64,000 nucleotides of DNA. It comes from Bolinopsis microptera. Its lineage: Eukaryota; Ctenophora; Tentaculata; Lobata; Bolinopsidae. This document shows, one piece after another, positions 17,933-48,530 of the stretch; the first letter of the stretch is position 1, and every line of letters starts with the position of its first letter. The DNA is taken from positions 13,614,983-13,678,982 of the forward strand of contig NC_087077.1 of the NCBI RefSeq assembly GCF_026151205.1, read 5' to 3'. A model generated the notes under the pieces. It worked only from the letters and a program-made list of their open reading frames with translations, ran no database searches and was not told where the DNA came from. Both the position numbers and the translations under genes were made by a program.

Positions 17933-17934
17933 CA

Positions 17935-27866: not shown

Positions 27867-28317
27867 ACTGAACATTTTGATTTTAGTGTGTCTTTTAAAA
27901 CTTTATTTAAGATTTATTCAAAATTTGTTCAATTTATTTAGGGTTAAAACTTAATTAAAGATAGGTTTTTGTAATTATAACTTAATTTTCGACTTTCTGT
28001 GAATAGAATAATGGGTTATATAGTATATACTATATGGTTGTAGTAAAATTGTTCGTAGAGATTCTTTGTTAAAAGTATTTTGGGGATTATCGACTCTCGA
28101 TTATAAATTGTTTCCAAAAATTCGATAATATCCTGACTTCATTAAATGATAATGATATATAAATAGTCAACAATCAGTGGTCTTTTTAAGATATTATTAA
28201 GAGAACGGTTATTTAGTGCTTCTTTTAGTCCTTATTTTGAGATTTCAAAACATTGCAACTGTTCTTTTTATACTTCCTTCATTCACAATGTATCTATTTT
28301 CCAGTTGATTGACACTT

Positions 28318-28425
28318 CACAGTCCAAATTTTAAAAATGATTCACTGTCACAGTCCAGATTTTTAAAATGATTCACTGTCACAGTCCAAATTTTGTAAAT
28401 GATTCATTGTCACAGTCCAGATTTT
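28318..28425. repeat. 31-bp tandem repeat, 3.5 copies (also in copies B and C)
   Basis: Units CACAGTCCAAATTTTAAAAA + TGATTCACTGT with small variants, in the ELAV-like 3' UTR. Paralogous blocks lie at ~44836-44942 and ~47778-47884. Confidence 0.9.
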
Positions 28426-28610
28426 ATGCCGTTTTCTTGTATTTTAGATGATTTTATTTCCAAGTCCTATTGTTGATTTTTCACAAGAATTTTAATCATA
28501 CATTTTAAATGGAATTTTTTGCTTTACCATAATACCAAGTATGTAAATTATTCATCAATGTTACGTTGAATATTGACCTTATGCTTAATGCTTAATCGTA
28601 AAACAAATTT

Positions 28611-28616
28611 AATAAA
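28611..28616 (+). terminator. candidate poly(A) signal of the ELAV-like gene
   Basis: AATAAA ~745 nt after the stop codon. Copies occur at 45130-45135 and 48072-48077, so a transcript using exon 8B or 8C could also terminate. Confidence 0.4.
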
Positions 28617-28883
28617 ATTGTTTTGAAGGAGCAGTATATTTAACTTGAATGGTGTAATTGGAATTAATTTTGTGAGGGAAACTTTAATTTAAATAAGGGA
28701 TTATGATTATTGTTAAATCTACGTTTGTTAGTGTAAATTTGGTGTGAAGTTTGATGTTCAAAAGTATGTTTTCAATATGTTATAAAAAGTTTACGTTGTA
28801 AAATTGTTTTTCAAATTGCATAGAATTGTGGGTCATAGACTTCCCATGTCTTAACATGTCATAACCATGTCACAACCGTGTCT

Positions 28884-29080
28884 GACATGGTTATGACATG
28901 GTTATGACATGGTTATGACATGGTTATGACATGGTTATGACATGGTTATAACATGGTTATGAAATGGTTATGACATGGTTATGACATGGTTAAGACATGG
29001 TTATGACATGGTTATGACATGGTTATGCCATGGTTATGCCATGTTTGTGACATGGTTAAATGATATGGTTCTGACATGGT
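28884..29080. repeat. 11-bp GACATGGTTAT minisatellite, copy A
   Basis: Roughly 17 units with variants, preceded by the inverted sequence CATAACCATGTC, so the block can fold back. Copy A has six units before the first AACATGG variant unit; copies B and C have five. Confidence 0.9.
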
Positions 29081-30316
29081 ATTTCTAGTCTATGACCGAT
29101 TTGTGAAGGGCGATGATAACTTATTTATTGTTTCATCAGACATTATAATCGATCGAAATTGGTAAGGTATCAACCGATCAACACCCTTTCACCAATCTAA
29201 TTTATATCATATTACCGTGCAGTGCTGTGTAGAAGGTTTTTAAAATACCTTTTATTGAGCCGTACGATAAGACATGTAGATAAAATCCCGCCGGTTAATA
29301 GCACTTAAAAAGCATTGCGATATGATTGTAATTTGATCGAACTTCTTGACCGAGGTTTCTTTTATTATAAGACTTTTATTACTGTATAAGATTAAGACTG
29401 TTATAAAAAAGTGACAATCGTTTTTTGTCTAGGGGATCGTTAACATAATAAAAATGTAGAGGAAAAGTGGTTAGACAATTTTGATAATGAAGTATAATGT
29501 TAACGATCACCAGGTTTTACTAATATAGTAAAACACGAAGATCATTTATCTTAATTTTGATTGTCAAATGTTAAAAAATTAATAGGATTTCTAATTAATA
29601 TTTAGGTTTTGATATAGAGAGGCAAAGAAAGTTTTTAGGTAGATTGTGTTAACAGCACAATTTACATCAGCATTATTAGGGCCCAATAAATGAGGCATTA
29701 AACGATGGTTCACGAAAGTGTATCTCCAAAATAAAACCTATGTATGGATATGTTTCAAGGATAAATTAGGAGATATTATTGCTGGGTACAATTTTATTAT
29801 TATTATTGATTTTGGGGTTTTAAGTATTAAATTAAGTTCTGCAAGAAGGAGATTCTTATCTTGGAGGAATTATAACAACTATTTTAAATTAATTATTAAT
29901 TTGGGTAATTTTGTTTCCCAAGATCTGTTATATTTAATGACTTATTTCAAAATGCAGATACTATATTATGATTTCTCAAATAAATTGGGCGTGGAAAGCA
30001 ATGATATATTGTAAATTTGCGGTTAAGAAACTTGGATCTTGTTTTTATAATGTGTTGTGTTTTTTTCTTTCTTGTTTTCTATATACATTGTTTATTATTA
30101 TTATTATTATTAATTTAAATTGTGTTCCTATGGTCCTTATTTGATCTTTTTAATGAAACATTTGCGTTTTTCTTTGATTGCACAATTCATCGATTTCAAC
30201 TCAAAATTGGTTAAACTGAGTTCAGTCTCTGACTTAATTCTAAATGTTCAGAAATCAATAAATTCAAAGCCTTATCTCTTCTCACAAATCGAAACTTATT
30301 CTGTTATCTTATTCTT

Positions 30317-30809
30317 AACGAGATGGAACAAGGTCGTCCTGAACACCTGACTGCTCCTAACTCCGTGTGTTTGTACGTCTACAACTTACCTCCAGAAACT
30401 GACAGAGCTTTCCTTTTCACGGTCAGTTATCTCCTGTTTTAGCTGGGTTTTATACATAAATAGTGAAGAACTGAAGATGTTAATTGCATTACTCAGCGGG
30501 TTATTTGTATAATTTGAAAGTTTTAATAACAGTTCGTAGATTAGCAGTTCACGTATTCCATTACAATTCACAAGACCCCCCCCCCCCCCCCCCCCGGCAC
30601 CCCTCCAATCATTCTATACTATTTCTCAGCTGTTTAAAGATTTCGGTGAGATCGCCTCGGTGCGCCCCATCATCCACTACCCTACCATGCAATGCAAGGG
30701 ATTTGGGTTTGTGAACATGAAGCACCATTCTGCTGCTACCCTTGCTATCCACTCTCTGCACGGCAAGATCATCAACGGGAAACCACTCCAGGTTTCTTTC
30801 AAGAAATAA
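30317..30809 (+). pseudogene. duplicated ELAV-like exons 7B (truncated) and 8B
   Basis: Exon 7B (30317-30421) lacks the first 10 nt and the 3' splice site of exon 7; the bases before it (TTATTCTT) contain no AG. Its donor is intact. Exon 8B (30630-30809) keeps its TTTCTCAG acceptor, the full RRM3 second half including KGFGFVNM, and the stop. So 8B could serve as an alternative last exon spliced from exon 7A, giving an identical protein with a different 3' UTR. It could equally be silent. Confidence 0.8.
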
Positions 30810-31301
30810 ACTGAACATTTTGATTTTAGTGTGTCTTTTAAAACTTTATTTAAGATTTATTCAAAATTTGTTCAATTTATTTAGGGTTAAAACTTAATTA
30901 AAGATAGGTTTTTGTAATTATAAAGCAATGAAAGGCATTAGTTTGGTCAAATCAAATGGAACATATGCTATCAGACTTTCAACTGACTATGGCAGGGTTA
31001 AAACAGTTTTAACGCTAGCAACGATCCCCTTTTACATAGTTCCACTAAAATGATAATTTAAGATTAAATATGTATACTGTATAGTGATAGGTAGATAAAG
31101 TAAAATGTGTAATAAAACGGTAGGAATAAAGTATACTAAGTAAACGTAGTCAACACGTCATACAATGAACTGACCCAAACTACAATTACTCCCGCGTAAT
31201 TTCCCGCGTAATCCTAGAACTCCGATTTGCGCCGCCGCAAAGTTATTATAAAACTAAATTCAACACGTGCGACAAATATTTCGTAACATTAGAAAAGGAT
31301 G

Positions 31302-31323
31302 CCATAGGTCAGGCTATGGCATT
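31302..31323 (-). other. hairpin spanning the PLE stop codon (repeated in every unit)
   Basis: TGCCATAG and CTATGGCA are perfect 8-bp arms around GTCAGG. On the minus strand the TAG stop of the PLE ORF lies in the first arm. Equivalent hairpins lie 3,353, 6,706 and 10,059 bp further on. Confidence 0.85.
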
Positions 31324-34139
31324 AATATATTTCCACACCCAATACCAAACTTATTCTTTAGCCCATGCCTCTTTACCACTGATAAGTATATTTTACTAAG
31401 ACGATCCCGTCTAAAACCCAACTCAATTAAATCATCAGTAAACTTCAAAACCTTATCAGAAAAAGCAACAACGTTATTACATATCCTAGAATATCTCACA
31501 ACCTGTGAACAGTACGTGCCATATAATACACTACTAGCTTGATTACTCATCAAAGGTTGAAACTTGACCACTTTAAAACCAAACTTATCCCTTTTATCAT
31601 AAACTCTACACGAAAACTTCCCCTCGCTATTTATCGAAATATCAAGATCTAATACATTGGCGGCACTATCTACTTCATTTTCCTTATTAAGAGTAAGAGA
31701 GTCTGGATATATTAACTTAAAATATTCCTCTAAGTAACCATCAGAGTTAAGGGTAGTAATATCATCTATAAGTCTAAATGTATTATTTAACTTCTTTACA
31801 ATATAGTATCTACTTTTATACGTACTGTCTAGGAAACTGTTCTCAAAATACCAAAGTGTTAAGTTAGCAATATATGGACCAGGGTTGATTCCAATAGGTA
31901 CACCGATATGTTGCCGATATAAGATCTCTCCTACTTTAAAGTAACAATTATCCAGTAGAAACTCAACACATTTAATCAACTTAACTTCATCAAAAGCCAC
32001 AGTCCCATCTCTAAAGCTATTAACCCAAGCAGACCCTTTATCGTAAACAGCTATAAACTTCTTTTTACTATTCCTAAAGGCTAATTTAACAGTAAACTTG
32101 AGAGCATCCTTGATATCTTTATGGGCTAAATTCGTGTATAAAGTAGAAAAATCAAAAGTTTGGATGTTTCTCGCTAAGCTATTATCATTAATTTTATCTA
32201 AAGCTTCTAAAATCGGCTTATTATTCAAAATGACCCAATTCCTATTAACTCCTGTTACTTTAAACAACATGTTAGTATATCTGCAGATCTCTGAATAAAC
32301 AGCCTTTAAGGCTAAAGAAATCTTTACTGCCAAGGGCTTAATACTACAATTAGCATAAGAAATAACATACCTAAACTTTAAAATTGGCTTATGAAATTTA
32401 GGACTCGAAAACATGTGAGGTAAAATATCAATATTAGAATCTACTTTTATCCCAACGTCTTCTATGAACTTGAAAATATCTCTGTTAATATCACGAACTT
32501 CATGCTCCCCACTAACATCATCAATACCCTCATTAGATTGACACTCTTGTATAATATCACTTAAATAATAATGTTTACAAATAATAGCGACGTTCTTAGT
32601 TGCTTTGTCCACCGGACATAAAACAAAATACTTTCTGATAAACGCTAATTCTTCACAAGCTTTATCATTACTAAACACAGATTTCCGTTTAAGCTGTTTA
32701 GGATATTTCATTTTAAGAGCTTCAGTATTCTTCTTAACAATATCACTAAATTCATTAAACCAACCATTTAAACATGCACTATCGATTTTCTCTTTCCTAC
32801 TCCAAGGTTTTAAGATTTCTTTAACATTATCTATTACCGAATTACAATTCTTATCAAAATCAATCGTTTTAGGTTCTTTATAAGAAGGACCTTTCTCTAA
32901 CAGACTTCTCAAGGCGTCGTGCTTTACAAAATTAACATCCCCAGTCACAACATGACCACAATCCTGATTTACGAAATCAGTAAACATATGACATTTGCAT
33001 TCTAAAGGTTCAGTGTCTCCCTTAACAACGTTATTATAATTAAATAACTTCTTAGAAACATTATCAGTACCTTTATATACAACAGTAGGTTCTTTAATGT
33101 TACAAAAATTAACAAACGATTTCAAATTAGGAGATCTAAAAACTCTAGGTAAATTTAACATTTCAATACCCTTGTTCACAAAATCAATAGAACATAAAAC
33201 TTTAGGCTTACGGACGCTCTTACTTTTATCAGTTCTCGAGTTAAAAGGTCTAATTTTATAAGTGAATAAGTCCATTATAATACAATGTATCTGAGATCTA
33301 CTAGGGTCTAGGTTATCAATTTGAAAAACTTTATCTAAATAGCTCTCTTTAAGTTTAACGAGTGTAGACTTATTTAAAGGAAACAATAATTTACGTAATA
33401 AAATATTAACATCGCTGTGAAATGGTTCAACAACTAAACGTAATAATTCACCCAAAATATTGTCAATATCAAACTGAGATAAATCGCTTTGCTGTCTATC
33501 AGCCCAGGATCTCTTTCTAGAACTGTCTTTACAAGAAATAAATTTAGCATATTCACAATTATAACTATCTTTATTAGCTAAACTATCAATCCTATCATTA
33601 ACCCCATAAGGAAATTGTGTTTTAAGTACTCTGATCCAACGATCTTCATGTCCTTTCCTAATTTTAGAAATAATTTCATCAATAACAAATTTAGTAGAAT
33701 TAGGACGCTTAACACCAGTTCTCCCATTACCTGCAAGTTTCTGAATAATTTGAACATTAAACGAATTACAATTAATAGATTCTAAAAAATGCTGTCTCAA
33801 TCTAAAATTTCCCGAATTTCCAGTAGGATTCGTAGTCCCACGGTGTTGCGACATACGATCCTTAAGTTCTTGCACAGTCTCTCCTACATATTGAGAATTA
33901 CAACATTTACAGCTCAAAAGATAAATAACATTAGTACTTTTACAATTAATAACTTTCTCTTCTCCAACATCAAACTCAAATATACAGTCAAATTTAGTCC
34001 CAGATACAGATGACCTAAAGTCCGTACAAAACACCATATCAGCACAGGTTTTACAGCGACGAGAGCAGCGAAGGAAGGACACATCCTGTGACTTAGAAGA
34101 AGCAGCAGCAGCAGTAGTAACCATAGACATCAAAACCAT
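31314..34139 (-). CDS. PLE protein, N-terminal GIY-YIG-like nuclease + reverse transcriptase (unit 1)
   Basis: The first in-frame ATG is at 34139, giving 941 aa (numbered here from a TTG three codons upstream, 944). The N-terminus is Cys-rich (C28, C32, C35, C41). A GIY-YIG-like domain spans ~70-185: NVIYLL, then QYVGET, Arg98 in LKDRMSQHRG, and Glu168 before RWIRVLKTQFPYGVN. A linker of ~300 residues with scattered Cys/His follows. The RT spans ~505-890: PKFHKP (583), motif A FDFSTLYTNL with D666, motif B GVPIGINPGPYIANL (749), motif C LIDD with D795-D796, then VLDLDI and a YDKRDKFGF/QVVRYSR region. Nuclease-before-RT is the permuted order of the Chlamys/Naiad-type PLE group; canonical Penelope has it after RT. 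All catalytic positions are present and there is no internal stop, so it looks intact. Confidence 0.93.
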   Translation of the reverse strand: MVLMSMVTTAAAASSKSQDVSFLRCSRRCKTCADMVFCTDFRSSVSGTKFDCIFEFDVGEEKVINCKSTNVIYLLSCKCCNSQYVGETVQELKDRMSQHRGTTNPTGNSGNFRLRQHFLESINCNSFNVQIIQKLAGNGRTGVKRPNSTKFVIDEIISKIRKGHEDRWIRVLKTQFPYGVNDRIDSLANKDSYNCEYAKFISCKDSSRKRSWADRQQSDLSQFDIDNILGELLRLVVEPFHSDVNILLRKLLFPLNKSTLVKLKESYLDKVFQIDNLDPSRSQIHCIIMDLFTYKIRPFNSRTDKSKSVRKPKVLCSIDFVNKGIEMLNLPRVFRSPNLKSFVNFCNIKEPTVVYKGTDNVSKKLFNYNNVVKGDTEPLECKCHMFTDFVNQDCGHVVTGDVNFVKHDALRSLLEKGPSYKEPKTIDFDKNCNSVIDNVKEILKPWSRKEKIDSACLNGWFNEFSDIVKKNTEALKMKYPKQLKRKSVFSNDKACEELAFIRKYFVLCPVDKATKNVAIICKHYYLSDIIQECQSNEGIDDVSGEHEVRDINRDIFKFIEDVGIKVDSNIDILPHMFSSPKFHKPILKFRYVISYANCSIKPLAVKISLALKAVYSEICRYTNMLFKVTGVNRNWVILNNKPILEALDKINDNSLARNIQTFDFSTLYTNLAHKDIKDALKFTVKLAFRNSKKKFIAVYDKGSAWVNSFRDGTVAFDEVKLIKCVEFLLDNCYFKVGEILYRQHIGVPIGINPGPYIANLTLWYFENSFLDSTYKSRYYIVKKLNNTFRLIDDITTLNSDGYLEEYFKLIYPDSLTLNKENEVDSAANVLDLDISINSEGKFSCRVYDKRDKFGFKVVKFQPLMSNQASSVLYGTYCSQVVRYSRICNNVVAFSDKVLKFTDDLIELGFRRDRLSKIYLSVVKRHGLKNKFGIGCGNILMP

Positions 34140-34666
34140 CAGAACCAAACCAAAAGACAGGAAGAGAAGCCAGACAACAATGAACCATCCAAATTAACAA
34201 ACAAATACCAGTCTCCAGAGTTATCCCTTGGCCAGAGAAATCTCTTAAGCACAAGTTCCAACTCCGATGCTTATAAAGCAATGAAAGGCATTAGTTTGGT
34301 CAAATCAAATGGAACATATGCTATCAGACTTTCAACTGACTATGGCAGGGTTAAAACAGTTTTAACGCTAGCAACGATCCCCTTTTACATAGTTCCACTA
34401 AAATGATAATTTAAGATTAAATATGTATACTGTATAGTGATAGGTAGATAAAGTAAAATGTGTAATAAAACGGTAGGAATAAAGTATACTAAGTAAACGT
34501 AGTCAACACGTCGTACAATGAACTGACCCAAACTACAATTACTCCCGCGTAATTTCCCGCGTAATCCTAGAACTCCGATTTGCGCCGCCGCAAAGTTATT
34601 ATAAAACTAAATTCAACACGTGCGACAAATATTTCGTAACATTAGAAAAGGATGCCATAGGTCAGG

Positions 34667-37492
34667 CTATGGCATTAATATATTTCCACACCCAATACCA
34701 AACTTATTCTTTAGCCCATGCCTCTTTACCACTGATAAGTATATTTTACTAAGACGATCCCGTCTAAAACCCAACTCAATTAAATCATCAGTAAACTTCA
34801 AAACCTTATCAGAAAAAGCAACAACGTTATTACATATCCTAGAATATCTCACAACCTGTGAACAGTACGTGCCATATAATACACTACTAGCTTGATTACT
34901 CATCAAAGGTTGAAACTTGACCACTTTAAAACCAAACTTATCCCTTTTATCATAAACTCTACACGAAAACTTCCCCTCGCTATTTATCGAAATATCAAGA
35001 TCTAATACATTGGCGGCACTATCTACTTCATTTTCCTTATTAAGAGTAAGAGAGTCTGGATATATTAACTTAAAATATTCCTCTAAGTAACCATCAGAGT
35101 TAAGGGTAGTAATATCATCTATAAGTCTAAATGTATTATTTAACTTCTTTACAATATAGTATCTACTTTTATACGTACTGTCTAGGAAACTGTTCTCAAA
35201 ATACCAAAGTGTTAAGTTAGCAATATATGGACCAGGGTTGATTCCAATAGGTACACCGATATGTTGCCGATATAAGATCTCTCCTACTTTAAAGTAACAA
35301 TTATCCAGTAGAAACTCAACACATTTAATCAACTTAACTTCATCAAAAGCCACAGTCCCATCTCTAAAGCTATTAACCCAAGCAGACCCTTTATCGTAAA
35401 CAGCTATAAACTTCTTTTTACTATTCCTAAAGGCTAATTTAACAGTAAACTTGAGAGCATCCTTGATATCTTTATGGGCTAAATTCGTGTATAAAGTAGA
35501 AAAATCAAAAGTTTGGATGTTTCTCGCTAAGCTATTATCATTAATTTTATCTAAAGCTTCTAAAATCGGCTTATTATTCAAAATGACCCAATTCCTATTA
35601 ACTCCTGTTACTTTAAACAACATGTTAGTATATCTGCAGATCTCTGAATAAACAGCCTTTAAGGCTAAAGAAATCTTTACTGCCAAGGGCTTAATACTAC
35701 AATTAGCATAAGAAATAACATACCTAAACTTTAAAATTGGCTTATGAAATTTAGGACTCGAAAACATGTGAGGTAAAATATCAATATTAGAATCTACTTT
35801 TATCCCAACGTCTTCTATGAACTTGAAAATATCTCTGTTAATATCACGAACTTCATGCTCCCCACTAACATCATCAATACCCTCATTAGATTGACACTCT
35901 TGTATAATATCACTTAAATAATAATGTTTACAAATAATAGCGACGTTCTTAGTTGCTTTGTCCACCGGACATAAAACAAAATACTTTCTGATAAACGCTA
36001 ATTCTTCACAAGCTTTATCATTACTAAACACAGATTTCCGTTTAAGCTGTTTAGGATATTTCATTTTAAGAGCTTCAGTATTCTTCTTAACAATATCACT
36101 AAATTCATTAAACCAACCATTTAAACATGCACTATCGATTTTCTCTTTCCTACTCCAAGGTTTTAAGATTTCTTTAACATTATCTATTACCGAATTACAA
36201 TTCTTATCAAAATCAATCGTTTTAGGTTCTTTATAAGAAGGACCTTTCTCTAACAGACTTCTCAAGGCGTCGTGCTTTACAAAATTAACATCCCCAGTCA
36301 CAACATGACCACAATCCTGATTTACGAAATCAGTAAACATATGACATTTGCATTCTAAAGGTTCAGTGTCTCCCTTAACAACGTTATTATAATTAAATAA
36401 CTTCTTAGAAACATTATCAGTACCTTTATATACAACAGTAGGTTCTTTAATGTTACAAAAATTAACAAACGATTTCAAATTAGGAGATCTAAAAACTCTA
36501 GGTAAATTTAACATTTCAATACCCTTGTTCACAAAATCAATAGAACATAAAACTTTAGGCTTACGGACGCTCTTACTTTTATCAGTTCTCGAGTTAAAAG
36601 GTCTAATTTTATAAGTGAATAAGTCCATTATAATACAATGTATCTGAGATCTACTAGGGTCTAGGTTATCAATTTGAAAAACTTTATCTAAATAGCTCTC
36701 TTTAAGTTTAACGAGTGTAGACTTATTTAAAGGAAACAATAATTTACGTAATAAAATATTAACATCGCTGTGAAATGGTTCAACAACTAAACGTAATAAT
36801 TCACCCAAAATATTGTCAATATCAAACTGAGATAAATCGCTTTGCTGTCTATCAGCCCAGGATCTCTTTCTAGAACTGTCTTTACAAGAAATAAATTTAG
36901 CATATTCACAATTATAACTATCTTTATTAGCTAAACTATCAATCCTATCATTAACCCCATAAGGAAATTGTGTTTTAAGTACTCTGATCCAACGATCTTC
37001 ATGTCCTTTCCTAATTTTAGAAATAATTTCATCAATAACAAATTTAGTAGAATTAGGACGCTTAACACCAGTTCTCCCATTACCTGCAAGTTTCTGAATA
37101 ATTTGAACATTAAACGAATTACAATTAATAGATTCTAAAAAATGCTGTCTCAATCTAAAATTTCCCGAATTTCCAGTAGGATTCGTAGTCCCACGGTGTT
37201 GCGACATACGATCCTTAAGTTCTTGCACAGTCTCTCCTACATATTGAGAATTACAACATTTACAGCTCAAAAGATAAATAACATTAGTACTTTTACAATT
37301 AATAACTTTCTCTTCTCCAACATCAAACTCAAATATACAGTCAAATTTAGTCCCAGATACAGATGACCTAAAGTCCGTACAAAACACCATATCAGCACAG
37401 GTTTTACAGCGACGAGAGCAGCGAAGGAAGGACACATCCTGTGACTTAGAAGAAGCAGCAGCAGCAGTAGTAACCATAGACATCAAAACCAT
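34667..37492 (-). CDS. PLE protein (unit 2)
   Basis: Protein identical to unit 1. Unit 2 carries the only substitution I found in the array, in the non-coding pseudo-LTR part at ~34512. Coding sequence, start and stop hairpin are the same. Confidence 0.93.
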   Translation of the reverse strand: MVLMSMVTTAAAASSKSQDVSFLRCSRRCKTCADMVFCTDFRSSVSGTKFDCIFEFDVGEEKVINCKSTNVIYLLSCKCCNSQYVGETVQELKDRMSQHRGTTNPTGNSGNFRLRQHFLESINCNSFNVQIIQKLAGNGRTGVKRPNSTKFVIDEIISKIRKGHEDRWIRVLKTQFPYGVNDRIDSLANKDSYNCEYAKFISCKDSSRKRSWADRQQSDLSQFDIDNILGELLRLVVEPFHSDVNILLRKLLFPLNKSTLVKLKESYLDKVFQIDNLDPSRSQIHCIIMDLFTYKIRPFNSRTDKSKSVRKPKVLCSIDFVNKGIEMLNLPRVFRSPNLKSFVNFCNIKEPTVVYKGTDNVSKKLFNYNNVVKGDTEPLECKCHMFTDFVNQDCGHVVTGDVNFVKHDALRSLLEKGPSYKEPKTIDFDKNCNSVIDNVKEILKPWSRKEKIDSACLNGWFNEFSDIVKKNTEALKMKYPKQLKRKSVFSNDKACEELAFIRKYFVLCPVDKATKNVAIICKHYYLSDIIQECQSNEGIDDVSGEHEVRDINRDIFKFIEDVGIKVDSNIDILPHMFSSPKFHKPILKFRYVISYANCSIKPLAVKISLALKAVYSEICRYTNMLFKVTGVNRNWVILNNKPILEALDKINDNSLARNIQTFDFSTLYTNLAHKDIKDALKFTVKLAFRNSKKKFIAVYDKGSAWVNSFRDGTVAFDEVKLIKCVEFLLDNCYFKVGEILYRQHIGVPIGINPGPYIANLTLWYFENSFLDSTYKSRYYIVKKLNNTFRLIDDITTLNSDGYLEEYFKLIYPDSLTLNKENEVDSAANVLDLDISINSEGKFSCRVYDKRDKFGFKVVKFQPLMSNQASSVLYGTYCSQVVRYSRICNNVVAFSDKVLKFTDDLIELGFRRDRLSKIYLSVVKRHGLKNKFGIGCGNILMP

Positions 37493-38019
37493 CAGAACCA
37501 AACCAAAAGACAGGAAGAGAAGCCAGACAACAATGAACCATCCAAATTAACAAACAAATACCAGTCTCCAGAGTTATCCCTTGGCCAGAGAAATCTCTTA
37601 AGCACAAGTTCCAACTCCGATGCTTATAAAGCAATGAAAGGCATTAGTTTGGTCAAATCAAATGGAACATATGCTATCAGACTTTCAACTGACTATGGCA
37701 GGGTTAAAACAGTTTTAACGCTAGCAACGATCCCCTTTTACATAGTTCCACTAAAATGATAATTTAAGATTAAATATGTATACTGTATAGTGATAGGTAG
37801 ATAAAGTAAAATGTGTAATAAAACGGTAGGAATAAAGTATACTAAGTAAACGTAGTCAACACGTCATACAATGAACTGACCCAAACTACAATTACTCCCG
37901 CGTAATTTCCCGCGTAATCCTAGAACTCCGATTTGCGCCGCCGCAAAGTTATTATAAAACTAAATTCAACACGTGCGACAAATATTTCGTAACATTAGAA
38001 AAGGATGCCATAGGTCAGG

Positions 38020-40845
38020 CTATGGCATTAATATATTTCCACACCCAATACCAAACTTATTCTTTAGCCCATGCCTCTTTACCACTGATAAGTATATTTT
38101 ACTAAGACGATCCCGTCTAAAACCCAACTCAATTAAATCATCAGTAAACTTCAAAACCTTATCAGAAAAAGCAACAACGTTATTACATATCCTAGAATAT
38201 CTCACAACCTGTGAACAGTACGTGCCATATAATACACTACTAGCTTGATTACTCATCAAAGGTTGAAACTTGACCACTTTAAAACCAAACTTATCCCTTT
38301 TATCATAAACTCTACACGAAAACTTCCCCTCGCTATTTATCGAAATATCAAGATCTAATACATTGGCGGCACTATCTACTTCATTTTCCTTATTAAGAGT
38401 AAGAGAGTCTGGATATATTAACTTAAAATATTCCTCTAAGTAACCATCAGAGTTAAGGGTAGTAATATCATCTATAAGTCTAAATGTATTATTTAACTTC
38501 TTTACAATATAGTATCTACTTTTATACGTACTGTCTAGGAAACTGTTCTCAAAATACCAAAGTGTTAAGTTAGCAATATATGGACCAGGGTTGATTCCAA
38601 TAGGTACACCGATATGTTGCCGATATAAGATCTCTCCTACTTTAAAGTAACAATTATCCAGTAGAAACTCAACACATTTAATCAACTTAACTTCATCAAA
38701 AGCCACAGTCCCATCTCTAAAGCTATTAACCCAAGCAGACCCTTTATCGTAAACAGCTATAAACTTCTTTTTACTATTCCTAAAGGCTAATTTAACAGTA
38801 AACTTGAGAGCATCCTTGATATCTTTATGGGCTAAATTCGTGTATAAAGTAGAAAAATCAAAAGTTTGGATGTTTCTCGCTAAGCTATTATCATTAATTT
38901 TATCTAAAGCTTCTAAAATCGGCTTATTATTCAAAATGACCCAATTCCTATTAACTCCTGTTACTTTAAACAACATGTTAGTATATCTGCAGATCTCTGA
39001 ATAAACAGCCTTTAAGGCTAAAGAAATCTTTACTGCCAAGGGCTTAATACTACAATTAGCATAAGAAATAACATACCTAAACTTTAAAATTGGCTTATGA
39101 AATTTAGGACTCGAAAACATGTGAGGTAAAATATCAATATTAGAATCTACTTTTATCCCAACGTCTTCTATGAACTTGAAAATATCTCTGTTAATATCAC
39201 GAACTTCATGCTCCCCACTAACATCATCAATACCCTCATTAGATTGACACTCTTGTATAATATCACTTAAATAATAATGTTTACAAATAATAGCGACGTT
39301 CTTAGTTGCTTTGTCCACCGGACATAAAACAAAATACTTTCTGATAAACGCTAATTCTTCACAAGCTTTATCATTACTAAACACAGATTTCCGTTTAAGC
39401 TGTTTAGGATATTTCATTTTAAGAGCTTCAGTATTCTTCTTAACAATATCACTAAATTCATTAAACCAACCATTTAAACATGCACTATCGATTTTCTCTT
39501 TCCTACTCCAAGGTTTTAAGATTTCTTTAACATTATCTATTACCGAATTACAATTCTTATCAAAATCAATCGTTTTAGGTTCTTTATAAGAAGGACCTTT
39601 CTCTAACAGACTTCTCAAGGCGTCGTGCTTTACAAAATTAACATCCCCAGTCACAACATGACCACAATCCTGATTTACGAAATCAGTAAACATATGACAT
39701 TTGCATTCTAAAGGTTCAGTGTCTCCCTTAACAACGTTATTATAATTAAATAACTTCTTAGAAACATTATCAGTACCTTTATATACAACAGTAGGTTCTT
39801 TAATGTTACAAAAATTAACAAACGATTTCAAATTAGGAGATCTAAAAACTCTAGGTAAATTTAACATTTCAATACCCTTGTTCACAAAATCAATAGAACA
39901 TAAAACTTTAGGCTTACGGACGCTCTTACTTTTATCAGTTCTCGAGTTAAAAGGTCTAATTTTATAAGTGAATAAGTCCATTATAATACAATGTATCTGA
40001 GATCTACTAGGGTCTAGGTTATCAATTTGAAAAACTTTATCTAAATAGCTCTCTTTAAGTTTAACGAGTGTAGACTTATTTAAAGGAAACAATAATTTAC
40101 GTAATAAAATATTAACATCGCTGTGAAATGGTTCAACAACTAAACGTAATAATTCACCCAAAATATTGTCAATATCAAACTGAGATAAATCGCTTTGCTG
40201 TCTATCAGCCCAGGATCTCTTTCTAGAACTGTCTTTACAAGAAATAAATTTAGCATATTCACAATTATAACTATCTTTATTAGCTAAACTATCAATCCTA
40301 TCATTAACCCCATAAGGAAATTGTGTTTTAAGTACTCTGATCCAACGATCTTCATGTCCTTTCCTAATTTTAGAAATAATTTCATCAATAACAAATTTAG
40401 TAGAATTAGGACGCTTAACACCAGTTCTCCCATTACCTGCAAGTTTCTGAATAATTTGAACATTAAACGAATTACAATTAATAGATTCTAAAAAATGCTG
40501 TCTCAATCTAAAATTTCCCGAATTTCCAGTAGGATTCGTAGTCCCACGGTGTTGCGACATACGATCCTTAAGTTCTTGCACAGTCTCTCCTACATATTGA
40601 GAATTACAACATTTACAGCTCAAAAGATAAATAACATTAGTACTTTTACAATTAATAACTTTCTCTTCTCCAACATCAAACTCAAATATACAGTCAAATT
40701 TAGTCCCAGATACAGATGACCTAAAGTCCGTACAAAACACCATATCAGCACAGGTTTTACAGCGACGAGAGCAGCGAAGGAAGGACACATCCTGTGACTT
40801 AGAAGAAGCAGCAGCAGCAGTAGTAACCATAGACATCAAAACCAT
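38020..40845 (-). CDS. PLE protein (unit 3)
   Basis: Identical to unit 1 in translated sequence. About 520 bp of non-coding DNA separates it from each neighbour: a ~390-bp 3' portion and the region carrying the 161-bp terminal repeat and leader. Confidence 0.93.
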   Translation of the reverse strand: MVLMSMVTTAAAASSKSQDVSFLRCSRRCKTCADMVFCTDFRSSVSGTKFDCIFEFDVGEEKVINCKSTNVIYLLSCKCCNSQYVGETVQELKDRMSQHRGTTNPTGNSGNFRLRQHFLESINCNSFNVQIIQKLAGNGRTGVKRPNSTKFVIDEIISKIRKGHEDRWIRVLKTQFPYGVNDRIDSLANKDSYNCEYAKFISCKDSSRKRSWADRQQSDLSQFDIDNILGELLRLVVEPFHSDVNILLRKLLFPLNKSTLVKLKESYLDKVFQIDNLDPSRSQIHCIIMDLFTYKIRPFNSRTDKSKSVRKPKVLCSIDFVNKGIEMLNLPRVFRSPNLKSFVNFCNIKEPTVVYKGTDNVSKKLFNYNNVVKGDTEPLECKCHMFTDFVNQDCGHVVTGDVNFVKHDALRSLLEKGPSYKEPKTIDFDKNCNSVIDNVKEILKPWSRKEKIDSACLNGWFNEFSDIVKKNTEALKMKYPKQLKRKSVFSNDKACEELAFIRKYFVLCPVDKATKNVAIICKHYYLSDIIQECQSNEGIDDVSGEHEVRDINRDIFKFIEDVGIKVDSNIDILPHMFSSPKFHKPILKFRYVISYANCSIKPLAVKISLALKAVYSEICRYTNMLFKVTGVNRNWVILNNKPILEALDKINDNSLARNIQTFDFSTLYTNLAHKDIKDALKFTVKLAFRNSKKKFIAVYDKGSAWVNSFRDGTVAFDEVKLIKCVEFLLDNCYFKVGEILYRQHIGVPIGINPGPYIANLTLWYFENSFLDSTYKSRYYIVKKLNNTFRLIDDITTLNSDGYLEEYFKLIYPDSLTLNKENEVDSAANVLDLDISINSEGKFSCRVYDKRDKFGFKVVKFQPLMSNQASSVLYGTYCSQVVRYSRICNNVVAFSDKVLKFTDDLIELGFRRDRLSKIYLSVVKRHGLKNKFGIGCGNILMP

Positions 40846-41372
40846 CAGAACCAAACCAAAAGACAGGAAGAGAAGCCAGACAACAATGAACCATCCAAAT
40901 TAACAAACAAATACCAGTCTCCAGAGTTATCCCTTGGCCAGAGAAATCTCTTAAGCACAAGTTCCAACTCCGATGCTTATAAAGCAATGAAAGGCATTAG
41001 TTTGGTCAAATCAAATGGAACATATGCTATCAGACTTTCAACTGACTATGGCAGGGTTAAAACAGTTTTAACGCTAGCAACGATCCCCTTTTACATAGTT
41101 CCACTAAAATGATAATTTAAGATTAAATATGTATACTGTATAGTGATAGGTAGATAAAGTAAAATGTGTAATAAAACGGTAGGAATAAAGTATACTAAGT
41201 AAACGTAGTCAACACGTCATACAATGAACTGACCCAAACTACAATTACTCCCGCGTAATTTCCCGCGTAATCCTAGAACTCCGATTTGCGCCGCCGCAAA
41301 GTTATTATAAAACTAAATTCAACACGTGCGACAAATATTTCGTAACATTAGAAAAGGATGCCATAGGTCAGG

Positions 41373-44198
41373 CTATGGCATTAATATATTTCCACACCCA
41401 ATACCAAACTTATTCTTTAGCCCATGCCTCTTTACCACTGATAAGTATATTTTACTAAGACGATCCCGTCTAAAACCCAACTCAATTAAATCATCAGTAA
41501 ACTTCAAAACCTTATCAGAAAAAGCAACAACGTTATTACATATCCTAGAATATCTCACAACCTGTGAACAGTACGTGCCATATAATACACTACTAGCTTG
41601 ATTACTCATCAAAGGTTGAAACTTGACCACTTTAAAACCAAACTTATCCCTTTTATCATAAACTCTACACGAAAACTTCCCCTCGCTATTTATCGAAATA
41701 TCAAGATCTAATACATTGGCGGCACTATCTACTTCATTTTCCTTATTAAGAGTAAGAGAGTCTGGATATATTAACTTAAAATATTCCTCTAAGTAACCAT
41801 CAGAGTTAAGGGTAGTAATATCATCTATAAGTCTAAATGTATTATTTAACTTCTTTACAATATAGTATCTACTTTTATACGTACTGTCTAGGAAACTGTT
41901 CTCAAAATACCAAAGTGTTAAGTTAGCAATATATGGACCAGGGTTGATTCCAATAGGTACACCGATATGTTGCCGATATAAGATCTCTCCTACTTTAAAG
42001 TAACAATTATCCAGTAGAAACTCAACACATTTAATCAACTTAACTTCATCAAAAGCCACAGTCCCATCTCTAAAGCTATTAACCCAAGCAGACCCTTTAT
42101 CGTAAACAGCTATAAACTTCTTTTTACTATTCCTAAAGGCTAATTTAACAGTAAACTTGAGAGCATCCTTGATATCTTTATGGGCTAAATTCGTGTATAA
42201 AGTAGAAAAATCAAAAGTTTGGATGTTTCTCGCTAAGCTATTATCATTAATTTTATCTAAAGCTTCTAAAATCGGCTTATTATTCAAAATGACCCAATTC
42301 CTATTAACTCCTGTTACTTTAAACAACATGTTAGTATATCTGCAGATCTCTGAATAAACAGCCTTTAAGGCTAAAGAAATCTTTACTGCCAAGGGCTTAA
42401 TACTACAATTAGCATAAGAAATAACATACCTAAACTTTAAAATTGGCTTATGAAATTTAGGACTCGAAAACATGTGAGGTAAAATATCAATATTAGAATC
42501 TACTTTTATCCCAACGTCTTCTATGAACTTGAAAATATCTCTGTTAATATCACGAACTTCATGCTCCCCACTAACATCATCAATACCCTCATTAGATTGA
42601 CACTCTTGTATAATATCACTTAAATAATAATGTTTACAAATAATAGCGACGTTCTTAGTTGCTTTGTCCACCGGACATAAAACAAAATACTTTCTGATAA
42701 ACGCTAATTCTTCACAAGCTTTATCATTACTAAACACAGATTTCCGTTTAAGCTGTTTAGGATATTTCATTTTAAGAGCTTCAGTATTCTTCTTAACAAT
42801 ATCACTAAATTCATTAAACCAACCATTTAAACATGCACTATCGATTTTCTCTTTCCTACTCCAAGGTTTTAAGATTTCTTTAACATTATCTATTACCGAA
42901 TTACAATTCTTATCAAAATCAATCGTTTTAGGTTCTTTATAAGAAGGACCTTTCTCTAACAGACTTCTCAAGGCGTCGTGCTTTACAAAATTAACATCCC
43001 CAGTCACAACATGACCACAATCCTGATTTACGAAATCAGTAAACATATGACATTTGCATTCTAAAGGTTCAGTGTCTCCCTTAACAACGTTATTATAATT
43101 AAATAACTTCTTAGAAACATTATCAGTACCTTTATATACAACAGTAGGTTCTTTAATGTTACAAAAATTAACAAACGATTTCAAATTAGGAGATCTAAAA
43201 ACTCTAGGTAAATTTAACATTTCAATACCCTTGTTCACAAAATCAATAGAACATAAAACTTTAGGCTTACGGACGCTCTTACTTTTATCAGTTCTCGAGT
43301 TAAAAGGTCTAATTTTATAAGTGAATAAGTCCATTATAATACAATGTATCTGAGATCTACTAGGGTCTAGGTTATCAATTTGAAAAACTTTATCTAAATA
43401 GCTCTCTTTAAGTTTAACGAGTGTAGACTTATTTAAAGGAAACAATAATTTACGTAATAAAATATTAACATCGCTGTGAAATGGTTCAACAACTAAACGT
43501 AATAATTCACCCAAAATATTGTCAATATCAAACTGAGATAAATCGCTTTGCTGTCTATCAGCCCAGGATCTCTTTCTAGAACTGTCTTTACAAGAAATAA
43601 ATTTAGCATATTCACAATTATAACTATCTTTATTAGCTAAACTATCAATCCTATCATTAACCCCATAAGGAAATTGTGTTTTAAGTACTCTGATCCAACG
43701 ATCTTCATGTCCTTTCCTAATTTTAGAAATAATTTCATCAATAACAAATTTAGTAGAATTAGGACGCTTAACACCAGTTCTCCCATTACCTGCAAGTTTC
43801 TGAATAATTTGAACATTAAACGAATTACAATTAATAGATTCTAAAAAATGCTGTCTCAATCTAAAATTTCCCGAATTTCCAGTAGGATTCGTAGTCCCAC
43901 GGTGTTGCGACATACGATCCTTAAGTTCTTGCACAGTCTCTCCTACATATTGAGAATTACAACATTTACAGCTCAAAAGATAAATAACATTAGTACTTTT
44001 ACAATTAATAACTTTCTCTTCTCCAACATCAAACTCAAATATACAGTCAAATTTAGTCCCAGATACAGATGACCTAAAGTCCGTACAAAACACCATATCA
44101 GCACAGGTTTTACAGCGACGAGAGCAGCGAAGGAAGGACACATCCTGTGACTTAGAAGAAGCAGCAGCAGCAGTAGTAACCATAGACATCAAAACCAT
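41373..44198 (-). CDS. PLE protein (unit 4, most 5' in transcription)
   Basis: Identical to unit 1. In transcription order this is the first unit. Upstream it has only the 161-bp partial repeat and a ~140-nt leader before it meets host DNA, so any promoter for this copy must lie within that stretch or in host sequence. Confidence 0.93.
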   Translation of the reverse strand: MVLMSMVTTAAAASSKSQDVSFLRCSRRCKTCADMVFCTDFRSSVSGTKFDCIFEFDVGEEKVINCKSTNVIYLLSCKCCNSQYVGETVQELKDRMSQHRGTTNPTGNSGNFRLRQHFLESINCNSFNVQIIQKLAGNGRTGVKRPNSTKFVIDEIISKIRKGHEDRWIRVLKTQFPYGVNDRIDSLANKDSYNCEYAKFISCKDSSRKRSWADRQQSDLSQFDIDNILGELLRLVVEPFHSDVNILLRKLLFPLNKSTLVKLKESYLDKVFQIDNLDPSRSQIHCIIMDLFTYKIRPFNSRTDKSKSVRKPKVLCSIDFVNKGIEMLNLPRVFRSPNLKSFVNFCNIKEPTVVYKGTDNVSKKLFNYNNVVKGDTEPLECKCHMFTDFVNQDCGHVVTGDVNFVKHDALRSLLEKGPSYKEPKTIDFDKNCNSVIDNVKEILKPWSRKEKIDSACLNGWFNEFSDIVKKNTEALKMKYPKQLKRKSVFSNDKACEELAFIRKYFVLCPVDKATKNVAIICKHYYLSDIIQECQSNEGIDDVSGEHEVRDINRDIFKFIEDVGIKVDSNIDILPHMFSSPKFHKPILKFRYVISYANCSIKPLAVKISLALKAVYSEICRYTNMLFKVTGVNRNWVILNNKPILEALDKINDNSLARNIQTFDFSTLYTNLAHKDIKDALKFTVKLAFRNSKKKFIAVYDKGSAWVNSFRDGTVAFDEVKLIKCVEFLLDNCYFKVGEILYRQHIGVPIGINPGPYIANLTLWYFENSFLDSTYKSRYYIVKKLNNTFRLIDDITTLNSDGYLEEYFKLIYPDSLTLNKENEVDSAANVLDLDISINSEGKFSCRVYDKRDKFGFKVVKFQPLMSNQASSVLYGTYCSQVVRYSRICNNVVAFSDKVLKFTDDLIELGFRRDRLSKIYLSVVKRHGLKNKFGIGCGNILMP

Positions 44199-44335
44199 CA
44201 GAACCAAACCAAAAGACAGGAAGAGAAGCCAGACAACAATGAACCATCCAAATTAACAAACAAATACCAGTCTCCAGAGTTATCCCTTGGCCAGAGAAAT
44301 CTCTTAAGCACAAGTTCCAACTCCGATGCTTATAA

Positions 44336-44496
44336 AGCAATGAAAGGCATTAGTTTGGTCAAATCAAATGGAACATATGCTATCAGACTTTCAACTGACT
44401 ATGGCAGGGTTAAAACAGTTTTAACGCTAGCAACGATCCCCTTTTACATAGTTCCACTAAAATGATAATTTAAGATTAAATATGTATACTGTATAG
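44336..44496 (-). repeat. 161-bp terminal direct repeat of the PLE array
   Basis: Identical to the first 161 bp at the other end (30924-31084). It contains the palindrome GTTAAAACAGTTTTAAC. With the unit starts it defines a pseudo-LTR core. Confidence 0.9.
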
Positions 44497-46823
44497 TAAC
44501 TTAATTTTCGACTTTCTGTGAATAGAATAATGGGTTATATAGTATATACTATATGGTTGTAGTAAAATTGTTCGTAGAGATTCTTTGTTAAAAGTATTTT
44601 GGGGATTATCGACTCTCGATTATAAATTGTTTCCAAAAATTCGATAATATCCTGACTTCATTAAATGATAATGATATATAAATAGTCAACAATCAGTGGT
44701 CTTTTTAAGATATTATTAAGAGAACGGTTATTTAGTGCTTCTTTTAGTCCTTATTTTGAGATTTCAAAACATTGCAACTGTTCTTTTTATACTTCCTTCA
44801 TTCACAATGTATCTATTTTCCAGTTGATTGACACTTCACAGTCCAAATTTTAAAAATGATTCACTGTCACAGTCCAGATTTTTAAAATGATTCACTGTCA
44901 CAGTCCAAATTTTGTAAATGATTCATTGTCACAGTCCAGATTTTATGCCGTTTTCTTGTATTTTAGATGATTTTATTTCCAAGTCCTATTGTTGATTTTT
45001 CACAAGAATTTTAATCATACATTTTAAATGGAATTTTTTGCTTTACCATAATACCAAGTATGTAAATTATTCATCAATGTTACGTTGAATATTGACCTTA
45101 TGCTTAATGCTTAATCGTAAAACAAATTTAATAAAATTGTTTTGAAGGAGCAGTATATTTAACTTGAATGGTGTAATTGGAATTAATTTTGTGAGGGAAA
45201 CTTTAATTTAAATTAGGGATTATGATTATTGTTAAATCTACGTTTGTTAGTGTAAATTTGGTGTGAAGTTTGATGTTCAAAAGTATGTTTTCAATATGTT
45301 ATAAAAAGTTTACGTTGTAAAATTGTTTTTCAAATTGCATAGAATTGTGGGTCATAGACTTCCCATGTCTTAACCATGTCTTAACCATGTCACAACCGTG
45401 TCTGACATGGTTATGACATGGTTATGACATGGTTATGACATGGTTATGACATGGTTATAACATGGTTATGAAATGGTTATGACATGGTTATGACATGGTT
45501 AAGACATGGTTATGACATGGTTATGACATGGTTATGCCATGGTTATGCCATGTTTGTGACATGGTTAAATGATATGGTTCTGACATGGTATTTCTAGTCT
45601 ATGACCGATTTGTGAAGGGCGATGATAACTTATTTATTGTTTCATCAGACATTATAATCGATCGAAATTGGTAAGGTATCAACCGATCAACACCCTTTCA
45701 CCAATCTAATTTATATCATATTACCGTGCAGTGCTGTGTAGAAGGTTTTTAAAATACCTTTTATTGAGCCGTACGATAAGACATGTAGATAAAATCTCGC
45801 CGGCTAATAGCACTGCGATATGATTGTAATTTGATCGAACTTCTTGACCGAGGTTTCTTTTATTAAAAGACTTTTATTATAAGACTGTTATAAAAAAGTG
45901 ACAATCGTTTTTTGTCTAGGGGATCGTTAACATAATAAAAATGTAGAGGAAAAGTGGTTAGAGAATTTTGATAATGAAGTATAATGTTAACGATCACCAG
46001 GTTTTACTTACTTAATTATAAGTAAGTTATTATGGTAATAGTAAGACACGAAGATCATTTATCTTAATTTTGATTGTCAAATGTTAAAAAATTAATAGGA
46101 TTTCTAATTAATATTTAGGTTTTGATATAGAGAGGCAAAGAAAGTTTTTAGGTAGATTGTGTTAACAGCACAATTTACATCAGCATTATTAGGGCCCAAT
46201 AAATGAGGCATTAAACGATGGTTCACGAAAGTGTATCTCCAAAATAAAACCTATGTATGGATATGTTTCAAGGATAAATTAGGAGATATTATTGCTGGGT
46301 ACAATTTTATTATTATTATTGATTTTGGGGTTTTAAGTATTAAATTAAGTTCTGCAAGAAGGAGATTCTTATCTTGGAGGAATTATAACAACTATTTTAA
46401 ATTAATTATTAATTTGGGTAATTTTGTTTCCCAAGATCTGTTATATTTAATGACTTATTTCAAAATGCAGATACTATATTATGATTTCTCAAATAAATTG
46501 GGCGTGGAAAGCAATGATATATTGTAAATTTGCGGTTAAGAAAACTTGGATCTTGTTTTTATAATGTGTTGTGTTTTTTTCTTTCTTGTTTTCTATATAC
46601 ATTGTTTATTATTATTATTATTATTAATTTAAATTGTGTTCCTATGGTCCTTATTTGATCTTTTTAATGAAACATTTGCGTTTTTCTTTGATTGCACAAT
46701 TCATCGATTTCAACTCAAAATTGGTTAAACTGAGTTCAGTCTCTGACTTAATTCTAAATGTTCAGAAATCAATAAATTCAAAGCCTTATCTCTTCTCACA
46801 AATCGAAACTTATTCTGTTATCT
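44497..46823. other. copy B, right part (3' UTR and downstream DNA)
   Basis: Resumes exactly where the PLE array interrupts the exon 8B 3' UTR. Non-genic; paralogous to 27979-30309. It includes the 11-bp minisatellite at 45404-45590. Confidence 0.9.
45404..45590. repeat. 11-bp GACATGGTTAT minisatellite, copy B
   Basis: One unit shorter than copy A and identical in arrangement to copy C, including the doubled CTTAACCATGT lead-in. Confidence 0.9.
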
Positions 46824-46830
46824 TATTCTT

Positions 46831-47327
46831 AACGAGATGGAACAAGGTCGTCCTGAACACCTGACTGCTCCTAACTCCGTGTGTTTGTACGTCTACAACT
46901 TACCTCCAGAAACTGACAGAGCTTTCCTTTTCACGGTCAGTTATCTCCTGTTTTAGCTGGGTTTTATACATAAATAGTGAAGAACTGAAGATGTTAATTG
47001 CATTACTCAGCGGGTTATTTGTATCATTTGAAAGTTTTAATAACAGTTCGTAGATTAGCAGTTCACGTATTCCATTACAATTCACAAGACCCCCCCCCCC
47101 CCCCCCCCCCCCCGGCACCCCTCCAATCATTCTATACTATTTCTCAGCTGTTTAAAGATTTCGGTGAGATCGCCTCGGTGCGCCCCATCATCCACTACCC
47201 TACCATGCAATGCAAGGGATTTGGGTTTGTGAACATGAAGCACCATTCTGCTGCTACCCTTGCTATCCACTCTCTGCATGGCAAGATCATCAACGGGAAA
47301 CCACTCCAGGTTACTTTCAAGAAATAA
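46831..47327 (+). pseudogene. duplicated ELAV-like exons 7C (truncated) and 8C
   Basis: Exon 7C (46831-46935) lacks the acceptor, as in copy B. Exon 8C (47148-47327) is open with an intact TTTCTCAG acceptor and stop. It encodes LQVTFKK instead of LQVSFKK, so a transcript using it would change one C-terminal residue of RRM3. An open frame running through the preceding C-rich intron into 8C (from ~46998) is fortuitous. Confidence 0.8.
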
Positions 47328-48345
47328 ACTGAACATTTTGATTTTAGTGTGTCTTTTAAAACTTTATTTAAGATTTATTCAAAATTTGTTCAATTTATTT
47401 AGGGTTAAAACTTAATTAAAGATAGGTTTTTGTAATTATAACTTAATTTTCGACTTTCTGTGAATAGAATAATGGGTTATATAGTATATACTATATGGTT
47501 GTAGTAAAATTGTTCGTAGAGATTCTTTGTTAAAAGTATTTTGGGGATTATCGACTCTCGATTATAAATTGTTTCCAAAAATTCGATAATATCCTGACTT
47601 CATTAAATGATAATGATATATAAATAGTCAACAATCAGTGGTCTTTTTAAGATATTATTAAGAGAACGGTTATTTAGTGCTTCTTTTAGTCCTTATTTTG
47701 AGATTTCAAAACATTGCAACTGTTCTTTTTATACTTCCTTCATTCACAATGTATCTATTTTCCAGTTGATTGACACTTCACAGTCCAAATTTTAAAAATG
47801 ATTCACTGTCACAGTCCAGATTTTTAAAATGATTCACTGTCACAGTCCAAATTTTGTAAATGATTCATTGTCACAGTCCAGATTTTATGCCGTTTTCTTG
47901 TATTTTAGATGATTTTATTTCCAAGTCCTATTGTTGATTTTTCACAAGAATTTTAATCATACATTTTAAATGGAATTTTTTGCTTTACCATAATACCAAG
48001 TATGTAAATTATTCATCAATGTTACGTTGAATATTGACCTTATGCTTAATGCTTAATCGTAAAACAAATTTAATAAAATTGTTTTGAAGGAGCAGTATAT
48101 TTAACTTGAATGGTGTAATTGGAATTAATTTTGTGAGGGAAACTTTAATTTAAATTAGGGATTATGATTATTGTTAAATCTACGTTTGTTAGTGTAAATT
48201 TGGTGTGAAGTTTGATGTTCAAAAGTATGTTTTCAATATGTTATAAAAAGTTTACGTTGTAAAATTGTTTTTCAAATTGCATAGAATTGTGGGTCATAGA
48301 CTTCCCATGTCTTAACCATGTCTTAACCATGTCACAACCGTGTCT

Positions 48346-48530
48346 GACATGGTTATGACATGGTTATGACATGGTTATGACATGGTTATGACATGGTTAT
48401 AACATGGTTATGAAATGGTTATGACATGGTTATGACATGGTTAAGACATGGTTATGACATGGTTATGACATGGTTATGCCATGGTTATGCCATGTTTGTG
48501 ACATGGTTAAATGATATGGTTCTGACATGG
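48346..48530. repeat. 11-bp GACATGGTTAT minisatellite, copy C
   Basis: Same arrangement as copy B. Confidence 0.9.

What the first reader, a model, noticed from the sequence alone, without database searches (positions are those of the whole stretch)
30924..44496. Intact tandem Penelope-like element with permuted GIY-YIG-then-RT order
Each unit encodes a full-length protein with the nuclease motifs (NVIYLL, QYVGET, Glu before RWIRVLKTQFPYGVN) N-terminal to the RT (FDFSTLYTNL, LIDD). Canonical Penelope proteins have the nuclease at the C-terminus. The order matches the described Chlamys/Naiad group of PLEs. All catalytic positions are present and no copy is broken, so this could be a currently active element.
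Basis: partly seen in the sequence, partly recalled or inferred. Interest (0 to 1): 0.8.

Follow-up and report, generated by a model that had tools for sequence, protein, structure and literature searches.

The report
Naiad-type retroelement in four-copy array
A copy-and-paste genetic element with its DNA-cutting domain at the front of its protein sits here as four nearly identical intact copies in a row; this kind of element is already known, so the find is a well-preserved new member rather than a new system.

Summary
Window 30918-44497 (- strand) is four head-to-tail 3353-bp units plus a 168-bp partial repeat, with one SNP among the four units; each unit has an uninterrupted ORF of about 941 aa from its first ATG. 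Profile comparison with canonical Penelope-like elements (PLEs) of the same genome shows the permutation: the N-terminal part matches their C-terminal GIY-YIG domain, the C-terminal part their RT. CxC linker, CCHH residues, longer A-B' stretch, pseudo-LTR and no detected hammerhead ribozyme fit the Naiad clade (clade features recalled; the defining paper was not held). So: a new member of a known kind. Added here: genome counts (137 3' ends, 10 tandem junctions at 5 loci), a second multi-unit array, units that cluster by locus, two paralogous empty sites, and insertion lengths that make the two arrays outliers and so favour, without proving, growth after insertion. Not testable here: expression, activity, read support for exactly four copies, structure (tool off).

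The parts
30918..44497 (-). Whole PLE array: 168-bp 5' partial repeat (pseudo-LTR) + four 3353-bp units
   Evidence: Self-BLAST and unit-by-unit comparison
44330..44497 (-). 5' pseudo-LTR copy (168 bp), identical to the tail of all four units
40977..44329 (-). Unit 1 (5'-most in coding sense), ORF 41373-44207
37624..40976 (-). Unit 2, ORF 38020-40854
34271..37623 (-). Unit 3, ORF 34667-37501; carries the only SNP (about 34513, noncoding)
30918..34270 (-). Unit 4 (3'-most), ORF 31314-34148; ends ...GCTTTATAA at the insertion's 3' boundary
33579..33956 (-). GIY-YIG endonuclease domain, about residues 65-190 (NVIYL at 73, QYVGE at 86, CCHH residues); bounds approximate
   Evidence: Pfam PF01541 at 74-109, below cut-off; hhalign to canonical C-terminal EN; alignment; motif positions
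32991..32999 (-). CxC linker motif CKC, residues 384-386
31419..32711 (-). Reverse transcriptase, about residues 480-910 (motif A FDFSTLYTN at 665, B' GVPIG at 749, C LIDD at 793); bounds approximate
   Evidence: hhalign to canonical PLE RT; motif positions
27376..30315 (+). Host tandem repeat copy 1 (2.94 kb, apparent last exons of an RRM gene), with the empty site at about 27975
46830..49778 (+). Host tandem repeat copy 3, second paralogous empty site at about 47437

Best explanation
The array is a young insertion of an endonuclease-bearing Penelope-like retrotransposon of the permuted (Naiad) type. Inferred cycle: a pseudo-LTR in the upstream unit drives an RNA across a unit junction; the protein's N-terminal GIY-YIG domain cuts the target and the RT copies the RNA from a fixed 3' point (GCTTTATAA) with frequent 5' truncation. 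This copy landed in the middle one of three tandem copies of the end of a host RRM gene, downstream of the apparent stop codon. The unit number (four here, 3.3 in a second array) most likely rose after insertion by unequal exchange between the repeated ends (about 50%; lowered from 55% because one of the two length fits does not make the length gap itself unexpected), less likely by copying one long multi-unit RNA (about 30%). Shown: layout, domain order, fixed 3' end, 5' truncation of other copies, empty sites, clustering of array units by locus. Inferred: promoter, cutting, priming, exchange. The confidence below is for the element's identity and mode of insertion, not for how the arrays grew.
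For: Permutation: a profile of 5 proteins (4 of which cover the nuclease; L039's ORF does not) aligns columns 11-159 to residues 822-996 and columns 480-906 to residues 334-726 of a canonical PLE of the same genome (probabilities 97.6 and 97.3). Three other families (L040, L045, L057; 27-29% identical) hold EN then RT in one frame. A-B' spacing 84-86 in those rows, L039 and the window protein (5 of 5), 62 in 2 of 2 canonical rows, 114 in TERT. Tandem junction TATAA|GCATCGG identical at 10 of 10 places found, 5 loci. 3' end GCTTTATA in 31 of 33 insertions (that call located the end by this motif, but the BLAST boundaries agree); 5' ends scattered. Empty sites in host copies 1 and 3. Matching bases across the insertion: mean 3.48 against 2.94 (SD 0.15) in 300 shuffles, none as high. 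Units cluster by locus at the three loci tested: window 100/99, C5 99/98, L001 99/97. Arrays are length outliers: fitted on the 22 non-array lengths of 1 kb or more, 0.004 inserts of 11.2 kb or more are expected, 0.15 if the arrays join the fit; seen 2.
Against: Pfam sees the GIY-YIG of this protein only below its cut-off and no RT; in L040 it lists no GIY-YIG at E up to 1, and lists weak RdRP_1 and FLYWCH matches. The defining Naiad paper was not held, so clade features are recalled and no outside PLE sequence entered any tree; in the RT tree the five rows of this group are held together in only 23% of bootstraps when the poorly aligned TERT row is in. No excess of longer target duplications: 1 of 33 rows has 6 or more matching bases, shuffles average 0.76. 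The second array's truncated first unit (1123 bp) reaches into the ORF of an upstream unit, which needs a template or first insert of at least 1.33 units and so speaks for multi-unit RNA. The length model is crude: with the arrays left out of the fit the empty range 3.8-11.2 kb is not unexpected (P 0.09-0.17 over three thresholds; 0.0007-0.0033 with them in); its 36 lengths were entered by hand, six of them nominal (L003, L012, L013, L020, L024, L035/36), and come from the best-scored candidates only.
Confidence: 0.88

Rival explanations
1. Each multi-unit array was laid down in one event by target-primed reverse transcription of a long read-through RNA from a parental array.
For: The C5 array begins inside the ORF of an upstream unit, so a template longer than one unit is likely to have existed; the Anolis Poseidon study proposes an mRNA of multiple copies (PMC11167929, section 3 read).
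Against: Two inserts above 11 kb are more than the fall-off of the other insertion lengths predicts in both fits. Only 5 loci show the junction at up to 3 mismatches, and the only other array found differs by 27-28 mismatches per unit, so no parent array of identical units was seen.
Confidence: 0.3
2. The number of units is an assembly artefact (expansion or collapse of a shorter or longer tandem).
For: Units are almost identical (one SNP in 4 x 3353), which an assembler can miscount; no reads are held.
Against: A separate array on another contig shows the same kind of structure with its own private sequence; each array carries one internal SNP in a single unit.
Confidence: 0.1
3. A canonical PLE or a LINE whose order only looks permuted because of the tandem register (EN of one unit read next to RT of the next).
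For: Tandem units always allow such a misreading.
Against: One uninterrupted 959-codon frame holds EN then RT in each of the four units, and three other families at other loci keep EN first in one frame. The one LINE fragment compared gives no profile match (probability 0.7).
Confidence: 0.01

Closest known systems
Naiad clade of Penelope-like elements (Craig et al. 2021, Mol Biol Evol 38:5005; title seen in reference lists, text not held; features recalled)
   Same: N-terminal GIY-YIG, CxC linker, CCHH residues, longer A-B' stretch in RT, pseudo-LTR and tandem insertions, no hammerhead ribozyme detected
   Different: No in-frame TGA in the intact copies (unlike the selenoprotein Naiads, recalled); microsatellite preference not evident by eye; sequence not compared with published Naiads
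Chlamys elements (same source, recalled)
   Same: N-terminal GIY-YIG before RT
   Different: Chlamys are recalled to lack the CCHH residues; this protein has them
Penelope/Poseidon-type PLE (PAc of Anolis, PMC11167929; L054 family of the same genome)
   Same: GIY-YIG and PLE RT in one ORF; PAc has pseudo-LTRs and tandem or partial-tandem copies and cuts AT-rich DNA; the target used here also reads TTATAA
   Different: There the nuclease is C-terminal and PAc carries a hammerhead ribozyme; here the nuclease is N-terminal and no ribozyme was found

Membership tests
Naiad (N-terminal EN+ PLE) | GIY-YIG N-terminal to RT in one ORF | tested here: met
   Pfam hit for GIY-YIG below cut-off, RT models by relatives only
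Naiad (N-terminal EN+ PLE) | CxC motif in the linker | tested here: met
   CKC at 384-386, CxC in 6 of 6 aligned rows
Naiad (N-terminal EN+ PLE) | CCHH residues in the nuclease (absent in Chlamys) | tested here: met
   Two Cys and two His shared by the 4 of 6 rows that cover the domain, two of them near-copies of one family
Naiad (N-terminal EN+ PLE) | Insertion-in-fingers stretch between RT motifs A and B' | tested here: met
   Spacing 84 against 62 in canonical PLEs and 114 in TERT; by spacing only, not by structure
Naiad (N-terminal EN+ PLE) | Pseudo-LTRs and tandem insertions | tested here: met
Naiad (N-terminal EN+ PLE) | No canonical hammerhead ribozyme | tested here: met
   No Rfam hammerhead match at E up to 1 in 26 kb or up to 10 in one unit with flanks
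Naiad (N-terminal EN+ PLE) | Insertion bias for microsatellites | tested here: inconclusive
   Flanks of 33 insertions printed; no microsatellite seen by eye, no statistic run
Naiad (N-terminal EN+ PLE) | RT phylogeny inside the clade | tested here: inconclusive
   Only rows of the same genome; groups with L039 at 100/99, the rest of the group unresolved with TERT present
Canonical Penelope/Poseidon | GIY-YIG C-terminal to RT | tested here: not met
   Order is reversed
GIY-YIG fold | Fold of residues 65-190 by structure prediction | not testable with these tools

The most novel reading that the evidence does not exclude
The multi-unit arrays of this Naiad family are made in one insertion by repeated reverse transcription of a single unit (a circular or self-redundant RNA template), which would explain both why the units of an array are private to their locus and why no insertion between 3.8 and 11.2 kb was seen.
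Probability: 0.1. Interest if true: 0.6.

Novelty: new member of a known kind. Interest (0 to 1): 0.32.

Why it matters
Permuted PLEs link Penelope elements with telomerase and none has, to my recollection, been studied biochemically. This family offers intact, near-identical ORFs, canonical C-terminal-EN PLEs and a TERT gene in one genome, and two arrays with sequenced flanks, which makes the question of how PLE tandems arise (RNA-level or DNA-level) testable by resequencing. It does not change what kinds of element are known.

Tried and rejected
Pfam, PHROGs and NCBIfam on the whole protein: RT not recognised. PDB by sequence, single and profile: 0 matches. Relatives in IMG/VR: 69 pattern matches, none confirmed. 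A clue to the organism through COX1: no match in the genome; left unnamed. Hammerhead ribozyme: none; the miRNA-family matches fall on the 11-bp tandem repeats of the host sequence. RT tree with TERT: TERT row long and misaligned past motif B', so its root is not used. Selenoprotein idea: dropped, the intact frames have no in-frame TGA. Copy L001: first read as a dimer, then found to be two insertions 39 bp apart, the upstream one with its own TTAAATT repeat.

Lower bounds: one search scored 38 of 155 candidates, 48 of 1177, 40 of 148, 150 of 525; one search listed only the first places of 137. Of 38 insertion rows (36 fetched stretches, window, C5 array) 5 were left out (L003, L013, L024, L035, L036) because their 3' end is missing or altered or, for L036, because it is an inner piece of the L035 copy. 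The LINE row was left out of the tree. The tree holds 23 rows chosen from the loci that cover most of the last 1.4 kb. The BLAST E-values are for a set of 10 sequences.

Full report
What is there. Four open frames of 959 codons (944 aa from the listed TTG, about 941 from the first ATG) repeat on the - strand with period 3353. The array is 168 bp + 4 x 3353 bp, 30918-44497; among the four units there is a single difference, in unit 3, outside the ORF. A unit begins GCATCGGAG and ends GCTTTATAA; the last 168 bp are repeated at the 5' end of the array, which is the pseudo-LTR layout.

What the protein is. The GIY-YIG signal is N-terminal (residues 74-109; E 3.8e-4, below Pfam's cut-off). Three other families of the genome (L040, L045, L057) have the same order in one frame. 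L045 passes the GIY-YIG cut-off (27.4 against 22.6 bits, residues 69-123), while Pfam lists none in L040. L040 and L045 match RT models in their C-terminal part, below the curated cut-offs. The closest family (L039, 47%) has no nuclease in the ORF recovered. The same genome also holds canonical PLEs with the nuclease at residues 886-932 of 1013. A profile of five proteins (window, L040, L045, L057, L039) aligned to two canonical ones gives two strong blocks in swapped order: EN 11-159 to 822-996 and RT 480-906 to 334-726, probabilities 97.6 and 97.3; the next blocks score 0.7 and less; TERT of this genome scores 10.0 and a LINE fragment 0.7. TERT was confirmed against solved telomerases (best E 4.1e-14). 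The A-B' spacing (84-86 in 5 of 5, 62 in 2 of 2 canonical, 114 in TERT) and the CxC linker fit the Naiad description, which I recall from the 2021 paper's abstract; the paper itself was not held, only its title in reference lists. Naiad and Chlamys are in use as PLE classes in a published TE library (passages of PMC10941475).

The family in its genome. The 3'-terminal 30-mer occurs 137 times with up to 3 mismatches, reversed control 0; the tandem junction occurs 10 times at 5 loci, control 0: window 4, C5 3, and one each at C1, C6 and C9. So 127 of the 137 ends are not followed by another unit, and more diverged copies may be missed. Of 33 insertions with a readable 3' end, 31 end in GCTTTATA; L006 reads GCTTTAAA and L005 has a small duplication at that place. 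5' ends are scattered along the unit, as target-primed reverse transcription leaves them. Matching bases across the insertion are few: mean 3.48 against 2.94 (SD 0.15), 0 of 300 shuffles as high, but no excess of matches of 6 or more (1 row; shuffles 0.76 on average). Complete ORFs without stops are present in 9 units at 4 loci among the 48 matches scored. Pairwise dN/dS between those loci is 0.14-0.62 on few changes (4-12 synonymous).

The insertion site. Without the element, 27376-49778 is three tandem copies of about 2942 bp (96.9-98.3% alike over their long alignments), with the apparent last exons of an RRM gene (PF00076 E 1.7e-11 in copy 1, the only copy scanned; the short exon before it gave no match). 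Copies 1 and 3 keep the empty site GAAAATTAAGTTATAATTACAAAAA; the filled site reads GAAAATTAAGTTA|...GCTTTATAATTACAAAAA, so the insertion is precise with 0-3 bp of ambiguous overlap and microhomology at TATAA. The element came after the host triplication or is missing from the other two copies for another reason.

How the arrays arose. A second array (C5:23559378-23570550) has a 1123-bp truncated unit and three full units, again with one SNP inside, and 27-28 mismatches plus 3 gaps to the window units. In a tree of the last 1.4 kb of 23 rows, the units of each multi-unit locus tested form their own branch. Simple end-to-end template jumping of pseudo-LTR-bearing RNAs would leave an extra pseudo-LTR at each junction; none is there. 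The 36 other lengths end at 3.8 kb, and two arrays of 11.2 and 13.6 kb exceed what their fall-off predicts: expected number 0.001-0.004 with the arrays left out of the fit, 0.06-0.28 with them in, over three thresholds (the C5 length entered there was 11196, the measured value is 11173). The empty range between 3.8 and 11.2 kb is unexpected only in the second fit (P 0.0007-0.0033 against 0.09-0.17). I take unequal exchange after insertion as likeliest (about 50%); the truncated first unit of C5 still points to an RNA longer than one unit, in line with the multi-copy mRNA proposed for the Anolis element (section 3 of PMC11167929 read). A partial tandem of one full and one 5'-truncated copy is also described in a bdelloid rotifer (passages of PMC3846280).

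Verdict. Observation confirmed, interpretation supported, kind already known. I made no search for this exact family in repeat databases, since none was on hand, so 'new member' means that the family was not identified with a published one here.

Noticed in passing
window 27376-30315, 30316-30917 with 44498-46829, 46830-49778: Triple tandem duplication of the apparent last exons and 3' region of an RRM (RNA-binding) gene, 96.9-98.3% alike.
   Followed up: partly
window 28883-29080, 45403-45589, 48345-48531: 11-bp tandem repeat TGACATGGTTA with an inverted block beside it, perhaps able to form a long hairpin; related arrays lie on many other contigs.
   Followed up: no
window 17810-19273: Purine-rich satellite (AGG/AGGAGGAGGACTG units) of about 1.4 kb with strong strand skew.
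   Followed up: no
L001 (C1:22464694-22470045): Two near-identical insertions of the same family 39 bp apart in one orientation, sister to each other in the tree.
   Followed up: partly
C2:4663017 and 4666578; C5:8617111 and 8620673: GIY-YIG matches 3561-3562 bp apart on one strand, suggesting tandem copies in another PLE family too.
   Followed up: no
L053 (C1:11630007): TERT gene with a 701-codon uninterrupted frame covering the RNA-binding domain and much of the RT.
   Followed up: partly
window 51424-51481 (-): Sub-threshold match to the type-P5 twister ribozyme (28.8 bits, cut-off 37.6).
   Followed up: no
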